A stretch of DNA of 64,000 bases, taken from the NCBI RefSeq assembly GCF_000826685.1, contig NZ_JROO01000023.1, positions 1-64,000 of the forward strand. Direction: 5' to 3'. This DNA is from Streptomonospora alba. GTDB lineage: Bacteria; Actinomycetota; Actinomycetes; Streptosporangiales; Streptosporangiaceae. Position 1 is the first letter of the stretch; every line of letters starts with the position of its first letter. The notes under the pieces are model-generated. The model saw nothing but the letters and a program-made list of their open reading frames with translations. It was not told where the DNA came from and did not search any database. A program made the position numbers and the translations under genes. Shown piece by piece: positions 40,068 through 51,314 of this stretch.

Positions 40068-41207
40068 TCAACCGCGCACGGCCGCGGCCAGCGGCTCGGG
40101 CAGGTCGGCGGCCGTGCCCACCGGGCGGCGCCGCAGCAGGGACTCGGTCTGGCGGTGTGACAGCCCCAGCCCCGCCAGCGCCGCACGGGCCTGGTCCTCC
40201 GGCAGCGCGTCGAGCCAGCGCACCCACAGCGCGGCCCGTCCCGCTGCCGTGAGCGGCCCGTGCGCGCGGAAACGGGCGACGCCCCCGTCGGGGTAGACGT
40301 CCAGCCGCAGCCGCTCGGCCGGGCGCGGCGCCGCCACGACGAACATGTGGGGGGTGTCGGGCAGCAGCGGGGTGCGCTCCAGGAGCGGGAACCACTCCCC
40401 CGTGCCGTCGGCCTCCGCGTTGCCGCTGACGGCGGCCTCGGCGGGGGCGTTGTGCAGGAAGTAGGAGGTGTCCACCTCCAGCAGCCGCGGCTCGCCGGCG
40501 GCGGCCAAGCCGATCTCCAGGTGGTCGTTGCCCGCACCGCGGCGACGCGCGTTCTCCCATCCCTCGCCCATATGGCGGGCCCGGCCCGGCGCGATGGCGT
40601 TCTCCGGCGCACCGTAGAAGCCGTTGCTGCAGGCCAGCACGCGCCCGCCGACGACCAGGGCGGCCAGGTCCATCGACTCGGTGACCAGCAGCCGCGGGTC
40701 CGGCAGGGCCTCGCCGTGGACCCGCAGCCGGGCGACGCCCCCATCGGGGTGGATGTTCAGCCGCACGTGGGTGTAGCGGTGCGGGTCCTCGACGGCGAAG
40801 GCGTTGGCCGTGTCGCCGGCGACGGCGGTGCGGGGCACGAGGGTCGTCCACTCGGCGGCACCCAGTTCGCCGGTGGAGGGGTGGCCCTCGAACCCGGCGC
40901 CCTCCACCGACACCTCGGGCGGGTGGTTGCCGGTGAAGTGGGCGGTGTCGACGACGACGCCGTGCACGACACCGGGCACGGCCAGCCGCACGACAGCGTG
41001 GTCGTGGCCCTGATCGCGACGGCGCCGCGTCTCCCAGCCGTCGTAGATCTTGCCCTTGTGTCCGAATGCGGCGGGGTCGAATCCTGCCGCGCCGGGCTTG
41101 ATCAGGTTCTCGCGCTCGGCGAACGACTCGTCGCTGGCGTGCACGACGGCTCCGCCGCGACTGCGCAGGGCGAGGTCGGGCAGGAGCTGGAACGCGGGGC
41201 CGCTCAC
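40068..41207 (-). CDS. alc: Allantoicase
   Basis: Hydrolyses allantoate to ureidoglycolate and urea. 379 residues from a GTG start. Two tandem jelly-roll repeats are visible by the repeated signatures GKIYDGWETRRRRDQGHDHAVVR and MGEGWENARRRGAGNDHLEIGL (each cut below at 20 residues in comparison), and RLNIHPDGGVARLRVHG versus RLDVYPDGGVARFRAHG. The C-terminal ~45 residues are an extra helical tail. Last gene of hyi-glxR-gcl-alc. Confidence 0.93.
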   Translation of the reverse strand: MSGPAFQLLPDLALRSRGGAVVHASDESFAERENLIKPGAAGFDPAAFGHKGKIYDGWETRRRRDQGHDHAVVRLAVPGVVHGVVVDTAHFTGNHPPEVSVEGAGFEGHPSTGELGAAEWTTLVPRTAVAGDTANAFAVEDPHRYTHVRLNIHPDGGVARLRVHGEALPDPRLLVTESMDLAALVVGGRVLACSNGFYGAPENAIAPGRARHMGEGWENARRRGAGNDHLEIGLAAAGEPRLLEVDTSYFLHNAPAEAAVSGNAEADGTGEWFPLLERTPLLPDTPHMFVVAAPRPAERLRLDVYPDGGVARFRAHGPLTAAGRAALWVRWLDALPEDQARAALAGLGLSHRQTESLLRRRPVGTAADLPEPLAAAVRG

Positions 41208-41273: not shown

Positions 41274-42995
41274 TCAGGCGGTCGCGCCGGGCAGCGGCTC
41301 GAACTCCTTGACGGCGTCGAGGGCCGGTCCGTGGGGCGTGTTGGCCTCACGTTCGATCATGACCTCTACGAGCACAGGACGCGAGGTCCGCTGGGCCTCC
41401 TTGCGCGCCCAGTCGATGGCGGAGCGGACGTCGCCGGGCTCGGTGACGCGGCGCCCGGTGCAGCCGTAGGCCTCCATGATCTTGACGTTGTCGGTGCCGT
41501 AGTCGTCGTAGTGGATGTCGACCTGGTAGTTCATGCCGTAGGGGATCTCGGCCTGGCGGATGAGTCCGAGGTACTCGTTGTTGAGCATGATCAGCACGAA
41601 CGGCACGTCGTACTGGGCGGCGACCGCCAGCTCCTCGACCGTGTACTGGAAGCTGTAGTCGCCGACGACGCCGACCACCTCGGCCTCGGGCTCGGTGCGC
41701 TTGAGCGCCTTCTTCACGCCGATGGCCGCGGGGATCTCCCAGCCCAGCGGCCCCGCCTGGCCGCAGACCTGGTAGTGGCGGGGCAGGTGGGCCTTCTGGT
41801 GCTGTCCGCCCCAGATCTGATACAGCCCGATCGCGGTGACGAAGTAGGCCTCGGACCCGAAGGCCTCGTTGATCTCCTTGTAGACCCGCGGCGCTTTGAT
41901 CGGGGTGGAGTCGAAGTCCTCGCGCCGGCCCAGCTCGGACTTGAGCTCCTCGACCCGCCTCGCCCATGCGCCGGGGTCGCGGGCGGGCCCGCGCCGGGCG
42001 GCGCGCTCGGCCAGCGACTTGAGGAACAGCCCGGCGTCGGAGACCACGCCCAGGTCGGGCTCGAAGACCTTGCCGAGCTGGGTGGGCTCGATGTCGACGT
42101 GGATGAAGCGCCGGTCGCCGCGGTAGACGTCGAGCTTTCCGGTGTGGCGGTCTCCGAAGCGCGCGCCCACCGCCAGCACCAGGTCGGATTCGAGGAAGGA
42201 GGCGTTGCCGTAGCGCTGCGAGGTCTGCACTCCGGCCATGCCGGCATAGAGCGGGCTGTCCTCGTCGAAGGCGCCCTTGCCCATCAACGTGGTCTGCACG
42301 GGCACGTTGAGAATCTGGGCGACCTCGCGCAGCGCGTCGGCGGCCTCGGCGATCACGACGCCGCCCCCGGCCAGGATCAGCGGCCTGTCGGCCTCCAGCA
42401 GCATGTCCAGAGCCCGCTCGACGCGCGGCGGGTGCGGCCATACGGGGTGGATCGGCAGCGGCGCGTCGATGGTGGGGTCGTACTCGACGAACTCCTGGGC
42501 GATGTCCATGGGAAGGTCCACCAGGACCGGTCCGGGCCGCCCTTCGCGGGCCACCCGGAAGGCCTCGCGGAAGATCCACGGCGCCTGGCCGGCCTCCTTG
42601 AGCTGGACGGCCCACTTGGTCACCGGCGCGGCGATCTCGACGATGTCGACAGCCTGGAAAGCCTCCTGGTGCAGCTTGGTCGAGACGTTCTGGCCGGTGA
42701 TGCAGACCATCGGGATGGAATCGGCCATGGCGGTGTAGAGGCCGGTGATCATGTTGGTGCCGGCAGGGCCGGACGTGCCGATGGCCACGCCGACGCCGCC
42801 GTTGGTGCGCGCCCAGCCGTCGGCCATGTGAGTGGCGCCCTCTTCGTGGCGGACGGTCAGGTGCTCGATCCCGCCCACCTCCTCCATCGCCTTGTAGAGC
42901 GGCAGGATGGCCGCTCCCGGGCAGCCGAACGCCGTGTCGACGCCCTCGGACTTGAGGACCTCGACCACGGCGTTCATCGCGGGCATCTGTACCAT
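41274..42995 (-). CDS. gcl: Glyoxylate carboligase-like ThDP enzyme
   Basis: 573 residues, expected to join two glyoxylates to tartronate semialdehyde and CO2. Domain order is that of acetolactate synthase-like enzymes; NCGQAGPLGW-type segment appears as VCGQAGPLGWEIPAA and the ThDP/Mg site as GDYSFQ...NNEYLG. Similarity to E. coli Gcl runs through the chain (TSGPAGTNMITGLY, DIEPTQLGKVFEPDLGVVSDA). One oddity: residue 51 is Glu (RHEEGA), whereas E. coli Gcl has Val51 (RHVEGA) and is known for lacking that Glu. The neighbours glxR and hyi support the Gcl role. Confidence 0.88.
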   Translation of the reverse strand: MVQMPAMNAVVEVLKSEGVDTAFGCPGAAILPLYKAMEEVGGIEHLTVRHEEGATHMADGWARTNGGVGVAIGTSGPAGTNMITGLYTAMADSIPMVCITGQNVSTKLHQEAFQAVDIVEIAAPVTKWAVQLKEAGQAPWIFREAFRVAREGRPGPVLVDLPMDIAQEFVEYDPTIDAPLPIHPVWPHPPRVERALDMLLEADRPLILAGGGVVIAEAADALREVAQILNVPVQTTLMGKGAFDEDSPLYAGMAGVQTSQRYGNASFLESDLVLAVGARFGDRHTGKLDVYRGDRRFIHVDIEPTQLGKVFEPDLGVVSDAGLFLKSLAERAARRGPARDPGAWARRVEELKSELGRREDFDSTPIKAPRVYKEINEAFGSEAYFVTAIGLYQIWGGQHQKAHLPRHYQVCGQAGPLGWEIPAAIGVKKALKRTEPEAEVVGVVGDYSFQYTVEELAVAAQYDVPFVLIMLNNEYLGLIRQAEIPYGMNYQVDIHYDDYGTDNVKIMEAYGCTGRRVTEPGDVRSAIDWARKEAQRTSRPVLVEVMIEREANTPHGPALDAVKEFEPLPGATA

Positions 42996-43127: not shown

Positions 43128-44015
43128 TCACTTCTGCTCGGCGCCGAGCTGGTCGACGAGCTTGAGCAGCGCGGAGTGGTCGAGGCCGCCGTGGCCCTGG
43201 GCCTTGAGAGCGCCGACGAACTGCGCCACCAGGGCGCCCATCGGGACGGGCACGCCGGCCTCGCGGGCGGCGGCGGTGACGATGCCCATGTCCTTGTCGT
43301 GCAGCTCGATGCGGAACCCCGGTTCGAAGCGGCGGTGGCGCATGGCCTCGCCCTTGCGGGTGAGCACGGTGCTGCCGGCCAGGCCGCCGTTGAGGACGCG
43401 CAGACCCGCCTCGGTCTCGACGCCGTGGGCCTCCAGGAACACCAGCGCCTCGGCCACCAGCTGGATGTTGCCGGCGACGATGAGCTGGTTGGCGGCCTTG
43501 ACGGTCTGCCCCGCCCCGGAGGGGCCCACCAGCACGGCGGTGCCCAGCGGGGCGAACACGTCGGCGGCGGCGTCGAAGTCGGCGGAGTCCCCGCCGACCA
43601 TGATGGACAGCACGCCCTCGACCGCACCGGCCTCGCCGCCGCTGACGGGGGCGTCGAGCACCCGCAGGCCGTGCTTGGCGCCCTCCTCGGCGACGGCGCG
43701 CGCGGTGTCGGGGCGGATCGTGCTCATGTCGATCACCAGGGTTCCGGACGACGCGCTGTCGAACACGCCGCCGGTGGAGAACATGGCCTCTTCGACGTCG
43801 GGCGAGTCGGGGACCATCGTGATGACGACGTCGGCGCCCGCCACGGCCTCGGCGGGCGAGGACGCGGCGGTGCCGCCCTTCTCGGCGAAGCGGTCGGTCT
43901 GCTTGGGGCTGCGGTCGTAGCCGCGCACGGCGAAGCCGGCGGAGATCAGGTTGGCGGCCATGGGCAGGCCCATGATGCCGAGCCCGACGAACGCGATCGT
44001 GCGGGGTTGGGACAT
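43128..44015 (-). CDS. glxR: Tartronate semialdehyde reductase (2-hydroxy-3-oxopropionate reductase)
   Basis: 295 residues. Reduces tartronate semialdehyde to D-glycerate with NAD(P)H. N-terminal Rossmann motif FVGLGIMGLPMAANL, family signature VLDAPVSGGEAGAVEG and the catalytic Lys in GQTVKAANQLIV. The ATG at 44015 has AAGGAGG 8 bases upstream; the longer frame to 44033 would run over this site. Name used for the E. coli GlxR/GarR enzyme, not the corynebacterial CRP-like regulator GlxR. Confidence 0.93.
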   Translation of the reverse strand: MSQPRTIAFVGLGIMGLPMAANLISAGFAVRGYDRSPKQTDRFAEKGGTAASSPAEAVAGADVVITMVPDSPDVEEAMFSTGGVFDSASSGTLVIDMSTIRPDTARAVAEEGAKHGLRVLDAPVSGGEAGAVEGVLSIMVGGDSADFDAAADVFAPLGTAVLVGPSGAGQTVKAANQLIVAGNIQLVAEALVFLEAHGVETEAGLRVLNGGLAGSTVLTRKGEAMRHRRFEPGFRIELHDKDMGIVTAAAREAGVPVPMGALVAQFVGALKAQGHGGLDHSALLKLVDQLGAEQK

Positions 44016-44254
44016 GGCGGTTCCCTCCTTCAAGGGCGGTGCGGACGGTGCGGGAGCAAGGGCGGCGCGACAGGACGGGCGCGCCTCGGCCGGCGCTTCG
44101 GCGGAGCAGGGCCGGGCCCGACCGCGCGGGCGCGGACTCCGGGCCTGAGCGGCGGGAGGCGGGCCGGAACGGCGGGCGGCCCGGGCGGTCCAGGCGCCCG
44201 GTGCGGCCGGTATCGGAAGCGGAGGAAGGTCGAGGAAGAAGGAGTCGGCCGCGG
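44016..44254. other. Spacer between hyi and the reductase gene
   Basis: About 240 GC-rich bases inside the presumed operon. No ORF, operator or hairpin of note beyond generic GC pairing. Confidence 0.5.
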
Positions 44255-45055
44255 TCAGCTACGCAGCCGGCCGAAACTGTCGGCGGTGGCGACGGTGGGC
44301 TTGTACTCCAGCCCCACGTGGCCGTGGTAGCCGCCCTCCTGGGCGGCGGCGAGCAGGTCCATCAGGGGCAGCTGCCCGGTGCCGGGCTCGCCGCGGCCGG
44401 GCGCGTCGGCGATCTGGATGTGGCCGAACTCGGCGGCGTGGTCGCGCACGACGGCCGCCACATCGTCTCCATTCACCGCCAGGTGGTAGAGGTCGGCCAA
44501 GAGCGCGACGTTGGCGGCGCCCGCCTTCGCGGCGGCGGAGACGAAGGCGCGGCCGTCGGCGGCGGTGATCAGCGGGTAGTCCGCGGAACCGCTGATCGGC
44601 TCGATGAGCACGGTGCCGCCGACCGGCTCCAGGGCCTTGGCGGCGGCCAGGACGTTCTGCATGGCCGTCTCGTCGTGCTCGGCGGGGTCGACGCCTTCCT
44701 GGCGCAGGCCGTAGAGCGCGTTGAACGCCGTGGTGCCGGTGCGTTCGGCGATTCCGGCGACGACGTCGAGGTTGTCGCGGACCTCCTGGACCCGGTCGGG
44801 GTGGGAGAGGACGCCGCGATCGGGTCCGGGCAGCCGCCCGGCGAAGAGGTTCAGGCCGGTGAGGCGGACGCCGGCGTTCTCGACGGAGGCGACGAACGCG
44901 TCGACCTCGGCGTCGCCGGGCGCGGCGCTCTCGAAGGGCCACCAGAACTCGACGGCGTCGAATCCGGATTCGCGCGCGGCGGCGGGGCGCTGGTGCAGCG
45001 GAAGCTCGGTGAATAGCAGCGAGCAGTTGACGGTGTAGGGCAGCGAGTGGCTCAT
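44255..45055 (-). CDS. hyi: Hydroxypyruvate isomerase
   Basis: 266-residue TIM-barrel protein of the Hyi family, interconverting hydroxypyruvate and tartronate semialdehyde. Signatures: TVNCSLLFTELPL, GFDAVEFWWPF, LIEPISGSADYPL, ALLADLYHLAVNGDD, HIQIADAPGRGEPGTGQ and VGLEYKP. The acidic metal and catalytic residues fall in these segments. GGAGGAGG lies 6 bases upstream of the ATG. First gene of the minus-strand ureide/glyoxylate operon, about 197 bases after the predicted transcription start. Confidence 0.93.
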   Translation of the reverse strand: MSHSLPYTVNCSLLFTELPLHQRPAAARESGFDAVEFWWPFESAAPGDAEVDAFVASVENAGVRLTGLNLFAGRLPGPDRGVLSHPDRVQEVRDNLDVVAGIAERTGTTAFNALYGLRQEGVDPAEHDETAMQNVLAAAKALEPVGGTVLIEPISGSADYPLITAADGRAFVSAAAKAGAANVALLADLYHLAVNGDDVAAVVRDHAAEFGHIQIADAPGRGEPGTGQLPLMDLLAAAQEGGYHGHVGLEYKPTVATADSFGRLRS

Positions 45056-45635
45056 GGCTCGCCTCCTCCAAGAGGACGGACGGGGTCGGGCGGTTCGGGG
45101 ACGCGCTGCACCGGTCCGGGCGGAACCGGACCGGTTCGCACGGGCGGTGGGGGTGAGGGCCGGGGGACGGGACGCGGTCGGCGCGGCTGGAGGAGGGGCC
45201 GACCGGAGTGGCTGGACGGAGTCCGTGTGCGCTCCGCTCGCTCGGGTGAAGAGATTCCGTTATGTGGAATTGCTCTTTCACTTCAAGGAATTGATGTGAG
45301 TTTGCGCCACACTGCGGGGGTTGTCAACCACCCTTCGCGGCATTCCCGTGCGCCCGACTCGCCCTGACAGGGCTCCACACCCTGCGCCGTCATCACTCCC
45401 ACGACCGACCGACTCCACGCTCTCCCCCCTCCGAACCGCAATCCGGGATGCAGTACCGAGATTCCGAAGTGTGAAAACCTGATCCGCGACGGGCGTCGCG
45501 GCACCCTCCGGCCCGCAGGAGGGGCGCCGAACGGGCACCGGGAGATTGAATCCGACGGGGCCGAGACGGGAAGGTGTCCTCAGTCGGACAGGGCCTGGAC
45601 CACGGTCGGCCGCCGGGCCCGGCGAAGGAGGCACG
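45056..45635. other. Divergent control region of the ureide island
   Basis: 580 bases between hyi (minus) and uraD (plus). It contains the hyi promoter/operator described separately and a second, weaker relative, TTCCGAAGTGTGAAA (45462-45476), which matches the first site at 11 of 15 positions and could serve the uraD side. No gene is supported. Confidence 0.55.
45255..45286 (-). promoter_or_regulatory. hyi operon promoter with IclR-type operator
   Basis: Minus-strand -35 TTGAAG (45281-45286), 16-base spacer, -10 CATAAC (45259-45264). The palindrome ATTCC-GTTATGT-GGAAT (45254-45270) covers the -10. Its TTCC-N7-GGAA shape is usual for IclR-family operators, and an IclR gene closes this island. 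Confidence 0.7.
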
Positions 45636-46169
45636 ATGCCGGACAGCGCCGCTGCGAGCGCCCCCGATCCCGGTCTCGCACGCGTGAACGCCCTCTCCCC
45701 CGAGGAGTTCGCCACCGAGTTCGGCTCCTGCCTCGACGTGCGGCGCTGGATCGGCGAACTGCGCGACCGGCGCCCCTTCGCTTCGCGTTCGGCGCTCCTG
45801 GAGGCCGCCGACGAACTCGCGCGCACACTCACCGACGACGAGGTGGCCGCCGCCCTGGCCCGGCACCCCCGCATCGGCGAGCGCGCTGCCGGCACCGGCG
45901 CCGAAAGCACGTGGTCACGCGGTGAGCAGGAGGGGTTCTCCGCCGGCGAGGCCGAGGTGCGCGGGCGTTTCGCGGCCGCCCAGGCCGACTACGAACGGCG
46001 CTTCGGCCGGATCTACCTCGTCTGCGCAGAGGGCCGTCCGGCCGGCGAACTGCTGGCCGACCTCACCCGGCGCATGGCCAACGACCCGGCGACCGAGGCG
46101 CGCGTCGTCGCCGACGAACTCCGCAAGATCGCCCTGCAGCGTGTCGGAAAGGTACTCGATCGCCGATGA
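45636..46169 (+). CDS. uraD: 2-oxo-4-hydroxy-4-carboxy-5-ureidoimidazoline (OHCU) decarboxylase
   Basis: 177 residues; third step from urate to S-allantoin. Conserved helical family with FATEFGSCLDVRRW, the catalytic His in ARHPRIGERA, and a later E-Q segment (WSRGEQEGFS). The C-terminal RRMANDPATEARVVADELRKIALQRV is split here as RRMANDPATEARVVADEL and KIALQRVGK. The ATG has GAAGGAGG 5 bases upstream. It overlaps the next gene by 4 bases. Confidence 0.93.
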   Translation: MPDSAAASAPDPGLARVNALSPEEFATEFGSCLDVRRWIGELRDRRPFASRSALLEAADELARTLTDDEVAAALARHPRIGERAAGTGAESTWSRGEQEGFSAGEAEVRGRFAAAQADYERRFGRIYLVCAEGRPAGELLADLTRRMANDPATEARVVADELRKIALQRVGKVLDRR

Positions 46170-46528
46170 GCCACGTCACCACGCACGTGTTGGACACCGC
46201 CCTCGGCCGCCCCGCCGCCGGTGTACCGGTGCGGCTGGAACGCCCGGCCTCCCACAACGCCGGCGCCGACGGACACACCGGCAGCAGGACGGTGATCGCC
46301 TCCGGCGCCACCGACGACGACGGGCGCGCCCGCGACCTGGGCCCCGACCGCCTGGCGGAGGGCTCCTACCGGCTGGTCTTCGACACGGCCCACTACTTCG
46401 CCCGCACCGGGCAGCAGGGCTTCTATCCGGAGGTGGCGGTAGCCTTCGAACTCGCCGACGAGGAGGCCCACTACCACGTTCCGCTACTGCTCAGCCCGTT
46501 CGGCTACGCCACCTACCGCGGCAGCTGA
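46166..46528 (+). CDS. 5-hydroxyisourate hydrolase (transthyretin-like)
   Basis: 120 residues; second step of urate degradation. Family signatures: N-terminal SHVTTHVLDTALGRPAAGV with the conserved His7, a conserved region around TDDDGRARDL, YFARTGQQGFYPEV, HYHVPLLLSPFGYATYRGS with the terminal YRGS tetrapeptide that defines HIU hydrolases against true transthyretin. Coupled to uraD (ATGA). Confidence 0.95.
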   Translation: MSHVTTHVLDTALGRPAAGVPVRLERPASHNAGADGHTGSRTVIASGATDDDGRARDLGPDRLAEGSYRLVFDTAHYFARTGQQGFYPEVAVAFELADEEAHYHVPLLLSPFGYATYRGS

Positions 46529-46607: not shown

Positions 46608-47516
46608 ATGGCGATCCGCCTCGGGCGCAACGAGTACGGCAAGGCCGAGGTGCGCCTGGTGCACGTCGACCGCTCCGCGGCCGCCCACCGCATCACCGAC
46701 CTCAACGTCAGCACCCGGCTGCGCGGCGACATGGTGGCGGTGCACACCCGCGGCGACAACGCCCACTGCCTGACCACCGACACCCAGAAGAACGCGGTCT
46801 ATGCGCTGGCCCGCGAGCACGGCGTCGGCGCCGCCGAGGACTTCGGCCTGCTGCTGGCCCGCCACTTCACCACCGAGCACGACTACATCGACGGCGCCGG
46901 TGTGGAGCTTGAGCAGTACGCCTGGCAGCGCATCCCCACCGCCGAGGGGCCCCACGACCACGCCTTCGCCCGCAGCGGAGCCGAGACCCGCACCGCCGTC
47001 GTCACCAGGGACGGCGACCGCGAGTGGGTGGTCGCCGGGTTCGACGGGCTGACCGTGCTCAAGTCCGCCGAGTCGGAGTTCCGCGACTTCCCCAAGACCC
47101 GGTTCACCACCCTGGCCGAGACCGACGACAGGCTCCTGGCCACCGACATCACGGCCCGCTGGCGCTACACCGGCGGCCGGTGGGAGGCGGGCGCCACCGA
47201 CTGGGACGCGGTCTACGAGCAGGTGAAGGCGGTCATGCTGGAGACGTTCGCGACCACCCGCAGTCTCGCCCTGCAGCAGACCCTGTACACCATGGGCGAG
47301 GCCGTCCTGCGCGAGCACTCCGAGATCGCCGAGGTCCGCTTCTCCATGCCCAACATCCACCACATCGCGGTGGACCTGTCCCCCTTCGGCATGGACAACC
47401 CCAACGAGGTCTTCCACGCCGCCGATCGCCCCTACGGCCGCATCGAGGCCGCGGTCGAGCGCGACGACGCCGCCGGTCCAGGCCGGGCCTGGGACGCGAT
47501 CCCCGGCTTCGTATAA
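46608..47516 (+). CDS. Urate oxidase (uricase, cofactor-free)
   Basis: 302 residues; oxidises urate to 5-hydroxyisourate. Tandem T-fold. Visible active-site parts: NEYGKAEVRL (Lys12), the Thr57-Asp58 segment in CLTTDTQKNAVYAL, VLKSAESEFRDFPKTRFTTL and MPNIHHIAVDLSPF (His). The ATG has AAGGAG 6 bases upstream. With uraD and the HIU hydrolase it forms a complete urate-to-allantoin operon. Confidence 0.96.
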   Translation: MAIRLGRNEYGKAEVRLVHVDRSAAAHRITDLNVSTRLRGDMVAVHTRGDNAHCLTTDTQKNAVYALAREHGVGAAEDFGLLLARHFTTEHDYIDGAGVELEQYAWQRIPTAEGPHDHAFARSGAETRTAVVTRDGDREWVVAGFDGLTVLKSAESEFRDFPKTRFTTLAETDDRLLATDITARWRYTGGRWEAGATDWDAVYEQVKAVMLETFATTRSLALQQTLYTMGEAVLREHSEIAEVRFSMPNIHHIAVDLSPFGMDNPNEVFHAADRPYGRIEAAVERDDAAGPGRAWDAIPGFV

Positions 47517-47519
47517 GAG

Positions 47520-47549
47520 GAGGCGCGGGCGCCGCGGGCCGCGCGCCTC
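47520..47549. terminator. Hairpin between uricase and allantoinase genes
   Basis: Arms GAGGCGCG and CGCGCCTC with a 14-base GC-rich loop, placed between convergent genes and touching the allantoinase stop. Confidence 0.5.
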
Positions 47550-48954
47550 ACCCCCGTGTCAGCAGGCGGCCGCGCGGGGGCCGCCGTCCGTCCGGGTCGA
47601 TCGGGTCTCCGCGCAGCCAGGCGGAGCGGACCCGCCCGACGAGGTCGCGGCCGTCGTAGGGGGTCAGCGGGTGCCGGTGGTGCAGCGACGCGGCGTCGAC
47701 GCGGACCGGGTCCTCGGGGGCGACGACGGCGAAGTCCGCGTCGCGGCCCGGTTCCAGGACGCCTTTCGTGCTGAGCCCGGCGATCTCGGCGGGGGCGCGT
47801 GACATCCAGGCGGCGACGTCGGCGAGGCGGTGGCCGCGCGCGGCCGCCGCCGTCCACACGGCCGAGAAGCCCACCTGCAATCCGGAGATCCCGCCCCACG
47901 CTGTCGCGAAGTCGCCGGTGGCGGTGTTCTTGAGTGCGGGTGGACTGGGCGAGTGGTCGCTGACGACGCAGTCGATCACGCCCTCGGCCAGGCCCTGCCA
48001 CAGGGCGTCGCGCTCGGCGGCGCCGCGGATGGGCGGGCAGCACTTGTACTGAGTGGCGCCGGGCGGGACGTCCTCGGCGGCCAGGGTCAGGTAGTGCGGG
48101 CAGGTCTCGGCGGTCACGGGCACGCCCTCGGCGCGGGCCCGTGCGATCTCCGGCAGCGCCGCCGACGACGACAGGTGCAGGATGTGCGTACGGGCTCCGG
48201 TCGCCCGCGCGGCCTCGACGACCGCGCGCACCGCCGCGGCCTCGGCCTGCTCGGGACGCGACGCGGCGAAGGCCGCGTAGTCGCGCCCGTGGGCCGCCGG
48301 CGCCGCCGCGAGCACCGCGGGATCCTCGGCGTGCACGATCAGCAGCCCGCCGAACGCCCCGATCGCCTCCGCGGCGGTGCGCAGCTCGGCCGGGCCCAGG
48401 TGGCCGAACTCCTCGACACCCGACGGCGCGAGGAACGCCTTGAATCCGCAGACGCCCGCCTCGTGCAGCCGGCGCAGCTCCCCCGCGGTCTCGGGGCTGC
48501 TGTTCTCGGGAACCGCGCCGCCCCAGAACGCGACGTCGACGGCGACCGCCCCGTCGGCCGCCGCGCGCTTCTCCTCCAGCGCGTCGAGCGTCGTGGTGGG
48601 CGGGACGCTGTTGAGCGGCATGTCGACCAGCGTGGTGACGCCGCCGGCCGCGGCGGCGCGGGTGGCGGTGGCGAAGCCCTCCCACTCGGTGCGCCCCGGC
48701 TCGTTGATGTGCACGTGGCTGTCCACGAGGCCGGGCAGCAGCACCTCGTCGCCTGCGGTCTCGACCGTGCGGGCGGCCCGGGCACTGTGCCCGTACTCGC
48801 CGACCCAGGCGATGCGCCCGTCGCGCACGCCCACCGAGACCGCCCGCTCCCCCTCGGGGGTGACGGCGCGCAGCGCCCGCACGATCAGATCGCAGTCGTC
48901 TCCGCCGCCGGCGGGGGCGCCCTCCCCCCGGTACTCGCCGCCTCCGATGCTCAT
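47548..48954 (-). CDS. allB: Allantoinase
   Basis: Opens the hydantoin ring of allantoin to allantoate. 468-residue amidohydrolase. Metal ligands in GLVDSHVHINEPG (His80, His82), carboxylated Lys172 in CGFKAFLAPSG, His in THILHLSSS, and Asp in CVVSDHSPSP. Lies 9 bases after the DUF6986 gene on the same strand, so the two are co-transcribed. Confidence 0.95.
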   Translation of the reverse strand: MSIGGGEYRGEGAPAGGGDDCDLIVRALRAVTPEGERAVSVGVRDGRIAWVGEYGHSARAARTVETAGDEVLLPGLVDSHVHINEPGRTEWEGFATATRAAAAGGVTTLVDMPLNSVPPTTTLDALEEKRAAADGAVAVDVAFWGGAVPENSSPETAGELRRLHEAGVCGFKAFLAPSGVEEFGHLGPAELRTAAEAIGAFGGLLIVHAEDPAVLAAAPAAHGRDYAAFAASRPEQAEAAAVRAVVEAARATGARTHILHLSSSAALPEIARARAEGVPVTAETCPHYLTLAAEDVPPGATQYKCCPPIRGAAERDALWQGLAEGVIDCVVSDHSPSPPALKNTATGDFATAWGGISGLQVGFSAVWTAAAARGHRLADVAAWMSRAPAEIAGLSTKGVLEPGRDADFAVVAPEDPVRVDAASLHHRHPLTPYDGRDLVGRVRSAWLRGDPIDPDGRRPPRGRLLTRG

Positions 48955-48963
48955 GGAGACCCC

Positions 48964-50301
48964 CTACCCCACGCGGCGGGCCGCCAGCGCGGCCAGGTCG
49001 CCGGCGGTCGCGCCGCAGGCCGCGGTCACCTCGGACTCGTCGAGGGCGCCGCACTGCAGGCCGCGGGTCAGCACGGAGGCGAGCGCTTGTGCGGTGGCGG
49101 GCTCGTCGAGGACGGCGCCGCCGGCCGAGCCGAGGTAGTCGGCCAGCCGGGCGGCCGCGGGGGCCAAGGCGCGGCGGTAGAAGACGTAGGTGGCCAGGTA
49201 GCGGGTGGGCAGCTGGTGCGGGTGCATGTCCCACCCCTGGTAGAAGGCCCGCTCCAGAGAGCGCCCTACCAGCCGCGCGTGCAGCCGCCAGGCCGCGTGC
49301 ACCTGCTCGGCCGGGCCCACCGGCAGCACGTTGGTGGAGCCGTCCGACAGCCACACGCCCGTTCCCGCTGCGGCCACCTGCATGACGGCCTTGGCGTAGT
49401 CGGCGGCGGGGTGGTCCATCGCCTGGTGGGCGGCCGTCACTCCGCAGGCGGCGGTGTAGTCGTAGGTGCCGAAGTGCAGGGCGCTGACGCGGCCCTCGCC
49501 CGCGCGCACCATGGGCGCCAGCTCGGCGGTGCCGCCGGGGCCCATGACGCACTGCGGGGTCTCCACCTGCAGCTCGAACCGCAGCCGCCCCTCGTCGAGG
49601 CCGAGCATGCCCTCGATCCGGGCGCAGGCCGCGGCAGCCGCCGCCACCTGCTCCACCGAGGTGATCTTGGGCAGAGTGATGCGCACGCCCTCCGGCAGGT
49701 CCCCGGCCGCGTCCCGCAGCGCGCTCAGGAACAGCGCGAGGCTCCGTGCGCCGCGGTGCCGCTCCGCGGCCTCCATCCCCTTCATCCGGATTCCGATCCA
49801 GGGCGGGGCAGCACCGTCGCGGACGTCGGCGCCCAGCGCGGTGGCGGCGGCGGCGACGTGGGCGTCCTCCTCGGCGCCGGGCCGAGCACCGTAGCCGTCC
49901 TCGGCGTCGACGCGCAGGTCCTCGACGGGTTCGCGCTCCAGTTTGGCCAGCACGCGGGGCAGCGCCGCGGCGACGTCCCCCTCCTCCAGGCCGGTCGCCG
50001 ATGCCAGCTCCGCCGCAGAGGGGGCGTACTCGCGCAGCGCGGCGGCGGCCCGCGCACCCCAGTCGGCGGCCGCTCCGCGCCCGATCCGGTCGGCGGGCAC
50101 GTAGACGGTGTGCACCGGCTGCCGCCCGCCGCCGGTGCCGGGGTAGTCCCGCAGCAGCCGCGCGTCGGCGCCGGCAAGGCGGGCGTCGAGCTCGGCGTTC
50201 AGCTCCTCCAGCGACCGCTCCAGGAGCGGTCCCGGGGCGCCGGAACCGGCTTCCGGGCCGTTTCGCGCGCTCCCGGCGCCCTCGTCTCCGACTGCATCCA
50301 C
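48964..50301 (-). CDS. DUF6986 / CitE-HpcH-like aldolase-lyase family protein
   Basis: About 445 residues. The core is a TIM barrel of the HpcH/HpaI and citrate-lyase-beta kind: ITLPKITSVEQVAAAA, FELQVETPQCVMGPGG (metal-binding Glu), ALHFGTYDYTAACGV (metal-binding Asp). The N-terminal ~60 residues are helical and specific to this family. A metal-dependent C-C lyase or condensing reaction on glyoxylate or a 2-oxo acid is plausible; the true substrate is unknown. Start uncertain: I chose GTG 50301; the frame remains open to 50502. Co-directional with allB and behind an IclR-type site. Confidence 0.75.
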   Translation of the reverse strand: MDAVGDEGAGSARNGPEAGSGAPGPLLERSLEELNAELDARLAGADARLLRDYPGTGGGRQPVHTVYVPADRIGRGAAADWGARAAAALREYAPSAAELASATGLEEGDVAAALPRVLAKLEREPVEDLRVDAEDGYGARPGAEEDAHVAAAATALGADVRDGAAPPWIGIRMKGMEAAERHRGARSLALFLSALRDAAGDLPEGVRITLPKITSVEQVAAAAAACARIEGMLGLDEGRLRFELQVETPQCVMGPGGTAELAPMVRAGEGRVSALHFGTYDYTAACGVTAAHQAMDHPAADYAKAVMQVAAAGTGVWLSDGSTNVLPVGPAEQVHAAWRLHARLVGRSLERAFYQGWDMHPHQLPTRYLATYVFYRRALAPAAARLADYLGSAGGAVLDEPATAQALASVLTRGLQCGALDESEVTAACGATAGDLAALAARRVG

Positions 50302-50412: not shown

Positions 50413-50442
50413 TTCTGTATAGCGGACATTAACTTTTACAAT
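50413..50442 (+). promoter_or_regulatory. iclR promoter with IclR-type operator
   Basis: The site TTCTGTATAGCGGAC (50413-50427; complementary strand GTCCGCTATACAGAA) resembles TTCC-N7-GGAA operators and lies where the -35 of a promoter with -10 TACAAT (50437-50442) should be. It also sits upstream of the divergent DUF6986-allB genes. One regulator could control both directions. Confidence 0.6.
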
Positions 50443-50519
50443 TCGAAAACGACAAGAGTCGGCGGGCGCCGGCGCACCCGGCGCCGCGATCGCCGGGCAC
50501 AAGGATGGGAGCAGCTGAC

Positions 50520-51314
50520 GTGGCTACCTCGCAGGCGGCGGCCGACGCCGACCCCGGACCCCGCACGCGCTCGGGCGGCGTGCAATCGCTGGACCGCGCG
50601 TTCTCCCTGCTGGAGATCATGGCCGAGGCCGGCGGCGAGGTCTCGCTGAGCCAGCTCGCCGACTCCTCGGGACTTCCGCTGCCCACCATCCACCGCATCA
50701 TCCGCACCCTGCTGGCCAACGGCTACGTCCGCCAGCTGCCGTCGCGGCGATACGCTCTGGGCCCGCGGCTGATCGGCCTGGGCGACAGCGCCTCGCGGAT
50801 GCTGGGCACCTGGGCGCGGCCCCACCTGAGCCACCTCGTCGACGAACTTGGCGAGACCGCCAACCTGGCGATGCTCGACGGTGACAAGGTGGTCTACGTC
50901 GCGCAGGTGCCCTCCCAGCACGCGATGCGGATGTTCACCGAGGTCGGCCGGCGGGTGCTGGCGCACTCGGCGGGGGTGGGCAAGGCGCTGCTGGCCCAGC
51001 TGCCGGAGAAGGAGGCGCTGGCGGCACTGCGCAGAACCGGCATGCCCGCCGCCACCGACCGCACCATCACCGGAACCGAGACGTTCCTGGCCGAGATGAA
51101 CCGCATCCGCGAGCGGGGCTATGCCATCGACGACGGCGAGCAGGAGGTCGGTGTGCGCTGCCTGGCGGTGCCGGTCCTGGGCGGCCCGGCGATGATGGCG
51201 GTGTCGATCTCAGGCCCGGAGGCCCGGGTGAGCTGGGACTTCGTCGCCCGCGCCGCCCCGATCGTGCGCCGGACGGCTCTGCAGTTGGCCGGGGACCTGG
51301 AGCACCGCGACTAG
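50520..51314 (+). CDS. IclR-family regulator of the ureide island
   Basis: 264 residues. N-terminal winged helix (SLDRAFSLLEIMAEAGGEV and LADSSGLPLPTIHRIIRTLL), then the IclR effector domain (LAHSAGVGKALLAQLP, GYAIDDGEQEVGVRCLAVPV). The GTG at 50520 has GGGAG 8 bases upstream; an ATG at 50505 has no usable Shine-Dalgarno. Comparable to the allantoin/glyoxylate-responsive AllR repressors of enterobacteria and streptomycetes, by family and position. Expected ligand: glyoxylate or allantoin-derived. Confidence 0.9.
   Translation: MATSQAAADADPGPRTRSGGVQSLDRAFSLLEIMAEAGGEVSLSQLADSSGLPLPTIHRIIRTLLANGYVRQLPSRRYALGPRLIGLGDSASRMLGTWARPHLSHLVDELGETANLAMLDGDKVVYVAQVPSQHAMRMFTEVGRRVLAHSAGVGKALLAQLPEKEALAALRRTGMPAATDRTITGTETFLAEMNRIRERGYAIDDGEQEVGVRCLAVPVLGGPAMMAVSISGPEARVSWDFVARAAPIVRRTALQLAGDLEHRD

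What the first reader, a model, noticed from the sequence alone, without database searches (positions are those of the whole stretch)
48964..50301. DUF6986 lyase-like protein may fill a missing step in the ureide pathway
Seen: a CitE/HpcH-like barrel protein with metal-binding Glu (QVETPQ) and Asp (GTYDYT) is co-transcribed with allantoinase inside a complete urate-to-ureidoglycolate gene set. No ureidoglycolate lyase (AllA) or amidohydrolase (UAH/UraH) is recognisable, nor malate synthase. Known: the HpcH/CitE superfamily makes or breaks C-C bonds next to carboxylates, often with glyoxylate or pyruvate. Inference: it either acts on ureidoglycolate or consumes glyoxylate by a condensation. This is the best candidate here for an undescribed activity.
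Basis: partly seen in the sequence, partly recalled or inferred. Interest (0 to 1): 0.72.

Follow-up and report, generated by a model that had tools for sequence, protein, structure and literature searches.

The report
Likely missing ureidoglycolate-splitting enzyme, DUF6986
An uncharacterised protein of many actinobacteria keeps company with the genes that break down uric acid, and is probably the unrecognised enzyme that splits a late intermediate, ureidoglycolate, into glyoxylate and urea, although no assay has been done.

Summary
Confirmed: 48964-50301 (minus strand) encodes a DUF6986 protein, 9 bp upstream of allantoinase, in a urate-to-ureidoglycolate gene set. In 188 actinobacterial genomes 22 carry true DUF6986; all 22 also have an enzyme that makes ureidoglycolate (allantoicase 20, ureidoglycine aminohydrolase 2), against 3 of the 166 others. 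The classical lyase AllA occurs in 2 of 188, neither with DUF6986, but in 1 of 22 further DUF6986 genomes. Malic enzyme-aceB-DUF6986-ureidoglycine aminohydrolase operons place the protein between ureidoglycolate and glyoxylate, beside a true malate synthase. In Streptomyces the gene is unlinked yet carries the allantoin-gene palindrome (40 of 52 upstreams, 4 of 832 controls). Model and profiles give a malyl-CoA lyase/malate synthase barrel with its Mg, Arg and Asp-Glu-Asp residues invariant. Best reading: a metal-dependent ureidoglycolate urea-lyase unrelated to AllA (0.55). The glyoxylate-condensing alternative is less likely; this genome has malate synthase A and gcl. Nothing was assayed; ureidoglycolate also decays spontaneously, so the gap alone proves nothing.

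The parts
48964..50301 (-). DUF6986 gene, 445 aa, CitE/malyl-CoA lyase/malate synthase-like barrel; proposed ureidoglycolate urea-lyase
   Evidence: PF22484 E 1.1e-169; AlphaFold2 model pLDDT 91.4, pTM 0.87; Foldseek best 4l9y malyl-CoA lyase E 5.3e-10
47548..48954 (-). allB, allantoinase, 9 bp downstream of DUF6986
   Evidence: TIGR03178 562.8 bits, cut-off 357.9
50505..51314 (+). IclR-family regulator (AllR/BhcR-like), divergent from DUF6986
   Evidence: PF01614 and PF09339 over cut-off; best NCBIfam match BhcR 198 bits, below its cut-off
40068..41207 (-). allantoicase, makes ureidoglycolate + urea
   Evidence: TIGR02961 352 bits, cut-off 278
41274..42995 (-). gcl, glyoxylate carboligase
   Evidence: NF008431 873 bits, cut-off 791; TIGR01504 661, below its cut-off 711
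43128..44033 (-). glxR, tartronate semialdehyde reductase
   Evidence: TIGR01505 347 bits, cut-off 341
44255..45055 (-). hyi, hydroxypyruvate isomerase-like
   Evidence: TIGR03234 239 bits, below its cut-off 353
45546..46169 (+). uraD, OHCU decarboxylase (start uncertain)
   Evidence: TIGR03180 148 bits, cut-off 139
46166..46528 (+). uraH, hydroxyisourate hydrolase
   Evidence: TIGR02962 127 bits, cut-off 87
46608..47516 (+). uox, urate oxidase
   Evidence: TIGR03383 334 bits, cut-off 168
50413..50427 (-). operator-like site GTCCGCTATACAGAA between DUF6986 and the iclR gene
   Evidence: Seen, listed; two mismatches to TTCCRYNNNRYGGAA; one of the ten training sites of the matrix
45255..45269 (.). 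operator-like site TTCCGTTATGTGGAA between hyi and uraD (divergent)
   Evidence: Exact match to TTCCRYNNNRYGGAA; the same scan with up to 3 mismatches gave 25 matches in 12 kb, so weaker matches mean little

Best explanation
DUF6986 is a metal-dependent (S)-ureidoglycolate urea-lyase (reaction of EC 4.3.2.3: ureidoglycolate -> glyoxylate + urea), a non-homologous counterpart of AllA built on the CitE/malyl-CoA lyase/malate synthase barrel. Proposed mechanism (inferred): Mg held by Glu247 and Asp281 chelates the alpha-hydroxy-carboxylate of ureidoglycolate, as it chelates that of malyl-CoA in the relatives; Arg172, held by Asp132, takes the hydroxyl proton; the bond to the leaving group breaks, and a proton is given to the leaving urea nitrogen where malyl-CoA lyase gives it to the leaving enolate carbon. 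Glyoxylate then goes to gcl-glxR-hyi or to aceB-malic enzyme, urea to urease. Shown here: family, fold, invariant residues, genome association, operons, shared operator-like sites. Inferred: substrate, reaction, stereochemistry and the proton donor.
For: (1) Co-occurrence: true DUF6986 (E < 1e-100; next best match 2.6e-13) in 22 of 188 genomes; allantoicase in 20 of them, ureidoglycine aminohydrolase over cut-off in exactly the other two, G008 and G075; 3 of the 166 other genomes have either. Fisher p 9e-26; by genus 12 of 13 shared, p 4e-16, uncorrected for kinship. (2) The usual enzymes are lacking: AllA in 0 of 22; AllD over cut-off in 0 of 22 (25 searched); AllC/UAH-type TIGR01879 over cut-off absent in 8 of 22. 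(3) Operons: malic-aceB-DUF6986-ureidoglycine aminohydrolase in L040 (G008), L104 Arthrobacter mangrovi and L112 Microlunatus; aceB-DUF6986-ureidoglycine aminohydrolase in L139; overlapping DUF6986/ureidoglycine aminohydrolase genes on a Tsukamurella plasmid; allB-alc-DUF6986 in L142 and DUF6986-allB-alc in L143; urease directly beside DUF6986 in G161, G167 and Gordonia p174. (4) Shared operator: matrix trained on other promoters scores >= 14 in 40 of 52 Streptomyces-group DUF6986 upstreams against 4 of 832 other upstreams; exact palindrome about 90-100 bp before the match in 6 of 8 genomes, 73 sites in all, reversed-pattern control 5. (5) Active site: D132, E134, D135, R172, E247, D281, H360 invariant in 50 of 50 and aligned by hhalign with D42, E44, D45, R76, E141, D168, H252 of malyl-CoA lyase (roles from passages of PMC3832036). 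(6) Arthrobacter sp. Rue61a grows on allantoin as carbon and nitrogen source though genes for allantoate to glyoxylate 'were not obvious' (passages of PMC3534580).
Against: No activity data. Co-occurrence and co-regulation do not tell ureidoglycolate from glyoxylate as substrate. Ureidoglycolate decays spontaneously to glyoxylate and urea (passages of PMC3793230), so a lyase is not strictly needed. One of 22 further DUF6986 genomes, Nocardiopsis sp. JB363 (L067), also has an AllA homologue. G034, G065 and G076 have allantoicase without DUF6986 or AllA. 14 of 22 DUF6986 genomes have a TIGR01879 member; NCBIfam names the own one allantoate amidohydrolase, though it sits among hutH, hutU, hutF, hutI. 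The residue before the Mg Asp is Tyr/Phe in 50 of 50, bulky as in malate synthases. G039, G126, G161 and G167 have neither malate synthase nor gcl over cut-off, so a glyoxylate-consuming role is not excluded there. In Gordonia p174 a thioesterase gene overlaps DUF6986, which would suit a CoA-ester product. The match of Asp399 with the lid Asp299 of malyl-CoA lyase failed in my alignments.
Confidence: 0.55

Rival explanations
1. DUF6986 consumes the glyoxylate: a further malate synthase or malyl-CoA lyase, glyoxylate + acetyl-CoA -> malate or malyl-CoA.
For: Closest solved folds are malyl-CoA lyases, with malate synthases and CitE-like proteins following; the glyoxylate/Mg residues are invariant and the residue before the Mg Asp is bulky as in malate synthases (PMC3832036 passages). 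Malic enzyme directly beside DUF6986 without aceB between them in L044, L078 and L133. Four of 22 genomes have no PF01274 malate synthase. Thioesterase next door in Gordonia p174.
Against: aceB directly beside DUF6986 in 6 of 26 loci examined (L040, L084, L104, L112, L135, L139), and PF01274 in 18 of 22 DUF6986 genomes, the own one included. Of the 5 genomes with isocitrate lyase but no PF01274, 0 have DUF6986, all 5 being of one family. DUF6986 tracks ureide genes (22 of 22) and not isocitrate lyase (9 of 22, Fisher p 0.21).
Confidence: 0.15
2. DUF6986 is an aldolase that joins glyoxylate to another acceptor (a 2-oxo acid or glycine), without CoA.
For: The superfamily includes C-C lyases and aldolases (PF03328 match E 1.4e-5); glyoxylate is a product of the pathway.
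Against: The neighbouring genes already give complete routes for glyoxylate (gcl-glxR-hyi; aceB-malic enzyme) and no gene for a further product recurs in the clusters read.
Confidence: 0.13
3. DUF6986 acts one step earlier or beside the path: on allantoate or ureidoglycine (urea elimination), or as an accessory such as an epimerase of ureidoglycolate.
For: G008 has ureidoglycine aminohydrolase but neither allantoicase nor a TIGR01879 enzyme over cut-off, so its allantoate step is unassigned; allantoate is itself a urea adduct of glyoxylate.
Against: 20 of 22 DUF6986 genomes have an allantoicase that does the allantoate step; NCBIfam calls the aminohydrolase of G008 bifunctional with allantoicase; ureidoglycolate is the first intermediate shared by both kinds of cluster.
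Confidence: 0.09

Closest known systems
Malyl-CoA lyase (Rhodobacter sphaeroides 4L9Y, Methylobacterium 5UGR)
   Same: Fold (Foldseek E 5.3e-10, TM 0.69 by target), profile match (96.7% hhalign probability over residues 115-365), and Mg/Arg/Asp-Glu-Asp residues
   Different: About 16% identity; roughly 55 extra residues with helices between the first two strands (model); bulky Tyr/Phe where malyl-CoA lyases have Ala; ureide gene context; lid Asp not aligned
Malate synthase A and haloarchaeal malate synthase
   Same: Same barrel superfamily (3cuz, 3oyx); bulky residue before the Mg Asp
   Different: A separate family: PF01274 match only 0.014; found side by side with real aceB
AllA / DAL3 ureidoglycolate lyase (PF04115)
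   Same: Proposed reaction, ureidoglycolate -> glyoxylate + urea (EC 4.3.2.3; PMC3793230 passages)
   Different: No PF04115 match in the protein; AllA is a different fold (recalled) and Ni-dependent (PMC3793230 passages)
CitE-like proteins Bxe_B2899 (3R4I) and Reut_B4148 (3QQW)
   Same: Fold hits with 17-21% identity; profile hit 3R4I E 0.0017, 3QQW 0.13
   Different: Shorter, proteobacterial, function not stated in the entries seen; their gene context was not studied

Membership tests
DUF6986 (PF22484) | Profile match over the curated cut-off along nearly the whole model | tested here: met
   565 bits against cut-off 27, model positions 2-407 of 408
CitE-like / malyl-CoA lyase superfamily | TIM barrel with Mg-binding Glu and Asp, Arg, and D-x-E-D motif | tested here: met
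   Fold search, hhalign, invariance 50 of 50
CitE-like / malyl-CoA lyase superfamily | Catalytic Asp in the C-terminal lid (Asp299 of R. sphaeroides malyl-CoA lyase) | tested here: inconclusive
   Asp399 is invariant but neither hhalign (ends at 365) nor pairwise alignment places it on Asp299
Malyl-CoA lyase (NCBIfam NF041626 equivalog) | Score over the curated cut-off | tested here: not met
   29 bits against 500
Malate synthase (PF01274) | Score over the curated cut-off | tested here: not met
   14.9 bits against 26.4
HpcH/HpaI aldolase (PF03328) | Score over the curated cut-off | tested here: inconclusive
   25 bits at a cut-off of 25 for the window protein; of 9 other members 6 match at E <= 0.001, one of them over the cut-off (29.0), and 3 not at all
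AllA ureidoglycolate lyase (PF04115) | Homology to AllA/DAL3 | tested here: not met
   No PF04115 match listed at E <= 1
Ureidoglycolate lyase activity (EC 4.3.2.3) | Release of urea and glyoxylate from ureidoglycolate by the protein | not testable with these tools
   Needs an enzyme assay
CoA-ester lyase activity | Binding of CoA in the barrel mouth | not tested
   Model coordinates could not be examined; the lid residues for pantetheine were not mapped

The most novel reading that the evidence does not exclude
A carbon-nitrogen lyase has evolved on the malate synthase/malyl-CoA lyase barrel: the same Mg-glyoxylate chemistry is used, but urea instead of an acetyl-CoA enolate is the partner that leaves. 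DUF6986 would be the general actinobacterial ureidoglycolate urea-lyase, controlled by an AllR-like regulator even where, as in Streptomyces, its gene is far from the allantoin genes.
Probability: 0.5. Interest if true: 0.75.

Novelty: new variant of a known kind. Interest (0 to 1): 0.62.

Why it matters
If true, it names a function for a domain of unknown function present in many soil actinobacteria, closes a step that genome annotators have reported missing (PMC3534580 passages), and shows a C-C bond barrel used for C-N cleavage. It makes nitrogen release from purines in Streptomyces, Arthrobacter, Nocardiopsis and relatives directly testable with one enzyme assay, and gives a case of two unrelated protein families for one reaction.

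Tried and rejected
Malate synthase replacement was my first idea, from the weak PF01274 match. It was dropped as the leading reading after searches showed aceB in most DUF6986 genomes and beside the gene in 6 of 26 loci. Counting every PF22484 match over the curated cut-off (67 of 188 genomes) was rejected: 45 of these are short, weak matches (E 2.6e-13 or worse) that look like generic CitE-like proteins; only the 22 with E < 1e-100 were counted. For the 188-genome comparison, weak matches were likewise left out: 2 of 70 for PF01274 (G039, which is DUF6986 itself, and G052), 14 of 67 for isocitrate lyase (E > 1e-40), and 45 of 47 below the cut-off for TIGR03214.

An own-genome amidohydrolase (G000:C13, TIGR01879) was considered as a ureidoglycolate amidohydrolase; its neighbours are hutH, hutU, hutF and hutI. 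Whether the TIGR01879 members of the other 13 DUF6986 genomes are hut genes was not checked. Genes beside allantoicase in the two mycobacterial-type genomes without DUF6986 (G034, G065) were scanned for another lyase: seven proteins from L055-L057 gave racemase, permease, metallo-beta-lactamase and polysaccharide deacetylase matches and one no match; nothing obvious.

Sequence search of solved structures with the single protein gave nothing useful. The viral fold library gave no match at E <= 0.001. Placing Asp399 on the lid Asp of malyl-CoA lyase failed. The second palindrome TCAAC-N5-GTTGA (37 of 52 against 2 of 832, one mismatch allowed) was noticed only after reading the Streptomyces upstreams and is post hoc; one or other site occurs in 51 of 52. 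The context of 3R4I relatives was searched for but not followed.

Literature: no paper in the held open library contains DUF6986, and no paper that assigns this protein a function was seen in the listings; subscription papers and preprints are not held. The Streptomyces coelicolor AllR regulon work is recalled, not seen.

Full report
The thing itself. The ORF at 48964-50301 on the minus strand codes for 445 residues. Pfam gives DUF6986 at 565 bits; HpcH/HpaI and malate synthase barrels match only weakly, and the only NCBIfam match is haloarchaeal malyl-CoA lyase at 29 bits with a cut-off of 500. Allantoinase follows 9 bp downstream on the same strand. An IclR-type regulator diverges upstream. 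The window also holds urate oxidase, hydroxyisourate hydrolase, OHCU decarboxylase, allantoicase, glyoxylate carboligase, tartronate semialdehyde reductase and a hydroxypyruvate isomerase-like gene. So the path from urate to ureidoglycolate, and from glyoxylate onward, is present; only ureidoglycolate to glyoxylate has no known gene. Malate synthase A lies on the same contig outside the window.

Co-occurrence. The same 188 genomes of the phylum were searched with five families relevant here, plus AllA. DUF6986 at E < 1e-100 occurs in 22, from 12 genera and 11 families of the sample. Allantoicase occurs in 23, of which 20 have DUF6986. The two DUF6986 genomes without allantoicase, G008 and G075, are exactly the two genomes with ureidoglycine aminohydrolase over its cut-off. 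Thus 22 of 22 DUF6986 genomes, and 3 of 166 others, have an enzyme that makes ureidoglycolate (p 9e-26; 12 of 13 genera shared, p 4e-16). These p values ignore kinship, and 8 of the 22 belong to one genus. Of the three exceptions, G076 has its allantoicase on a contig of 4485 bases whose end lies where its congeners G179 and G184 carry DUF6986, so the gene may be unassembled; G034 and G065 are of one genus.

What else could do the step. AllA is in 2 of 188 genomes, neither with DUF6986 nor with a ureidoglycolate maker. In 22 further genomes reached through named DUF6986 loci it was found once, in Nocardiopsis sp. JB363, so the two families can coexist. Ureidoglycolate dehydrogenase AllD reached its cut-off in 0 of 25 genomes (22 with DUF6986 and the three exceptions). 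The family that includes allantoate and ureidoglycolate amidohydrolases (TIGR01879) is over its cut-off in 14 of the 22 and in G076. In the own genome that gene, which NCBIfam calls allantoate amidohydrolase, lies between hutU and hutF. Eight of the 22 have none over cut-off. Ureidoglycolate also falls apart by itself (passages of PMC3793230).

Neighbourhoods. In 13 of the 22 sample genomes DUF6986 lies within about 10 kb of purine or ureide genes; in one (G167) it is at a contig edge beside urease; in the 8 Streptomyces-like genomes it is not near them. Of 26 loci of other genera read more closely, 23 hold at least one of uox, uraH, uraD, allB, alc or ureidoglycine aminohydrolase. The most telling order is malic enzyme, aceB, DUF6986, ureidoglycine aminohydrolase, tightly packed in G008 (L040), Arthrobacter mangrovi (L104) and Microlunatus kandeliicorticis (L112); L139 has the last three. 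Read as a path it runs ureidoglycine -> ureidoglycolate -> (DUF6986) -> glyoxylate -> malate -> pyruvate. aceB stands directly beside DUF6986 in six loci (L040, L084, L104, L112, L135, L139). On a Tsukamurella plasmid DUF6986 overlaps the aminohydrolase gene. Urease is directly beside DUF6986 in G161, G167 and on Gordonia p174, and in the same cluster in L142; among the 80 named loci it was seen only in L142. Since allantoicase also yields urea, urease is weak evidence except on p174, where no other ureide gene is annotated within 9 kb and malate synthase G lies at the edge of that stretch. There, however, a thioesterase gene overlaps DUF6986, seen in no other locus searched.

Regulation. Reading the promoters of the window, of Nocardiopsis and Kribbella DUF6986 genes and of Streptomyces allB and aceB genes suggested a 15-base palindrome near TTCCRYNNNRYGGAA. 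A matrix made from ten such sites, none from a Streptomyces DUF6986 promoter, was run on the 200 bases before the DUF6986 match in 52 of the 80 named loci, those of Streptomyces and its nearest genera (the other 28 were left out). It scores 14 or more in 40 of 52, against 4 of 832 upstreams of other predicted genes of the same loci. The exact palindrome occurs 73 times in 8 whole Streptomyces-like genomes, 5 times for the reversed pattern, and stands about 90-100 bases before the DUF6986 match in 6 of the 8 (none exact in G092 and G139). In G153, with 7 sites in 8.2 Mb, one is before DUF6986, one before gcl and one between iclR and allB. A second palindrome, noticed afterwards, is in 37 of 52 and 2 of 832 and also before allB and aceB. 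Hence DUF6986 appears to belong to the allantoin regulon even where it is unlinked. That the IclR-type protein binds there is inferred.

Fold and active site. AlphaFold2 with 50 homologues gives pLDDT 91.4 and pTM 0.87. The best PDB match is R. sphaeroides malyl-CoA lyase (E 5.3e-10, 16% identity), with CitE-like proteins and malate synthases next. A profile search of PDB sequences also puts malyl-CoA lyases first (E 2e-5 and 1.6e-4). Profile alignment with four malyl-CoA lyase-like sequences places D132, E134, D135, R172, E247, D281 and H360 on D42, E44, D45, R76, E141, D168 and H252; all are invariant in 50 of 50. In malyl-CoA lyase, E141 and D168 hold Mg, R76 is proposed to take the hydroxyl proton and lid residue D299 to protonate the leaving carbon (passages of PMC3832036). 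Asp399 is invariant but could not be placed on D299. The residue before the Mg Asp is Tyr or Phe in all 50, where malyl-CoA lyases have Ala and malate synthases Leu or Trp.

Why a urea-lyase. The substrate of malyl-CoA lyase and ureidoglycolate share the same half, an alpha-hydroxy-carboxylate that becomes glyoxylate; they differ in the group that leaves. The retained residues are those that handle the glyoxylate half. A glyoxylate-consuming role would also fit the residues, but it is redundant in the aceB and gcl clusters, and DUF6986 follows ureide genes, not isocitrate lyase (9 of 22, p 0.21; none in the 5 genomes with isocitrate lyase but no PF01274). It remains open for G039, G126, G161 and G167, which have neither malate synthase nor gcl over cut-off.

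Distribution and novelty. Hits in 72,556 plasmid records are 5, all actinobacterial, annotated, where annotated, only as aldolase/citrate lyase family protein. None of 14 control genomes matches. No paper in the held library mentions DUF6986. In Arthrobacter sp. Rue61a growth on allantoin was observed although genes from allantoate to glyoxylate were not obvious (passages of PMC3534580). The reaction and the superfamily are known; their combination, if right, would be a new variant.

Noticed in passing
G000:C13, L145:8267-9553: An M20 enzyme that NCBIfam names allantoate amidohydrolase (634 bits, cut-off 372) lies between hutU and hutF in a histidine-degradation cluster, so the name is probably wrong for it.
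   Followed up: partly
G039, G126, G161, G167: Genomes with ureide clusters and DUF6986 but neither PF01274 malate synthase nor glyoxylate carboligase over cut-off; the fate of glyoxylate there is unknown.
   Followed up: no
L040, G008: Ureidoglycine aminohydrolase present, but neither allantoicase nor a TIGR01879 enzyme over cut-off in the genome; NCBIfam calls the aminohydrolase bifunctional with allantoicase.
   Followed up: no
L148:8471-10158 (Gordonia polyisoprenivorans p174): A hotdog thioesterase gene overlaps DUF6986, followed by a whole urease operon.
   Followed up: partly
L077:11522-11896, L133:11306-12011, L135:11344-11811, L044:12151-12723: A small protein with HTH_22, in some with a thiamine-binding-like domain, stands close downstream of DUF6986 in Kribbella, Leekyejoonella and Nocardioides and near it in G075; possibly a second regulator or sensor.
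   Followed up: no
L055, L056, L057 (G034, G065): Allantoicase genomes without DUF6986 or AllA, with hydantoin racemase and allantoin-type permease nearby; how they treat ureidoglycolate is unknown.
   Followed up: partly
L067 genome (Nocardiopsis sp. JB363, G189:C75:91763-92188): An AllA homologue coexists with DUF6986 in this genome.
   Followed up: no
Upstream of Streptomyces DUF6986, allB and aceB genes: A second palindrome, TCAAC-N5-GTTGA, in 37 of 52 DUF6986 upstreams and before allB and aceB; not found near DUF6986 in the window.
   Followed up: partly
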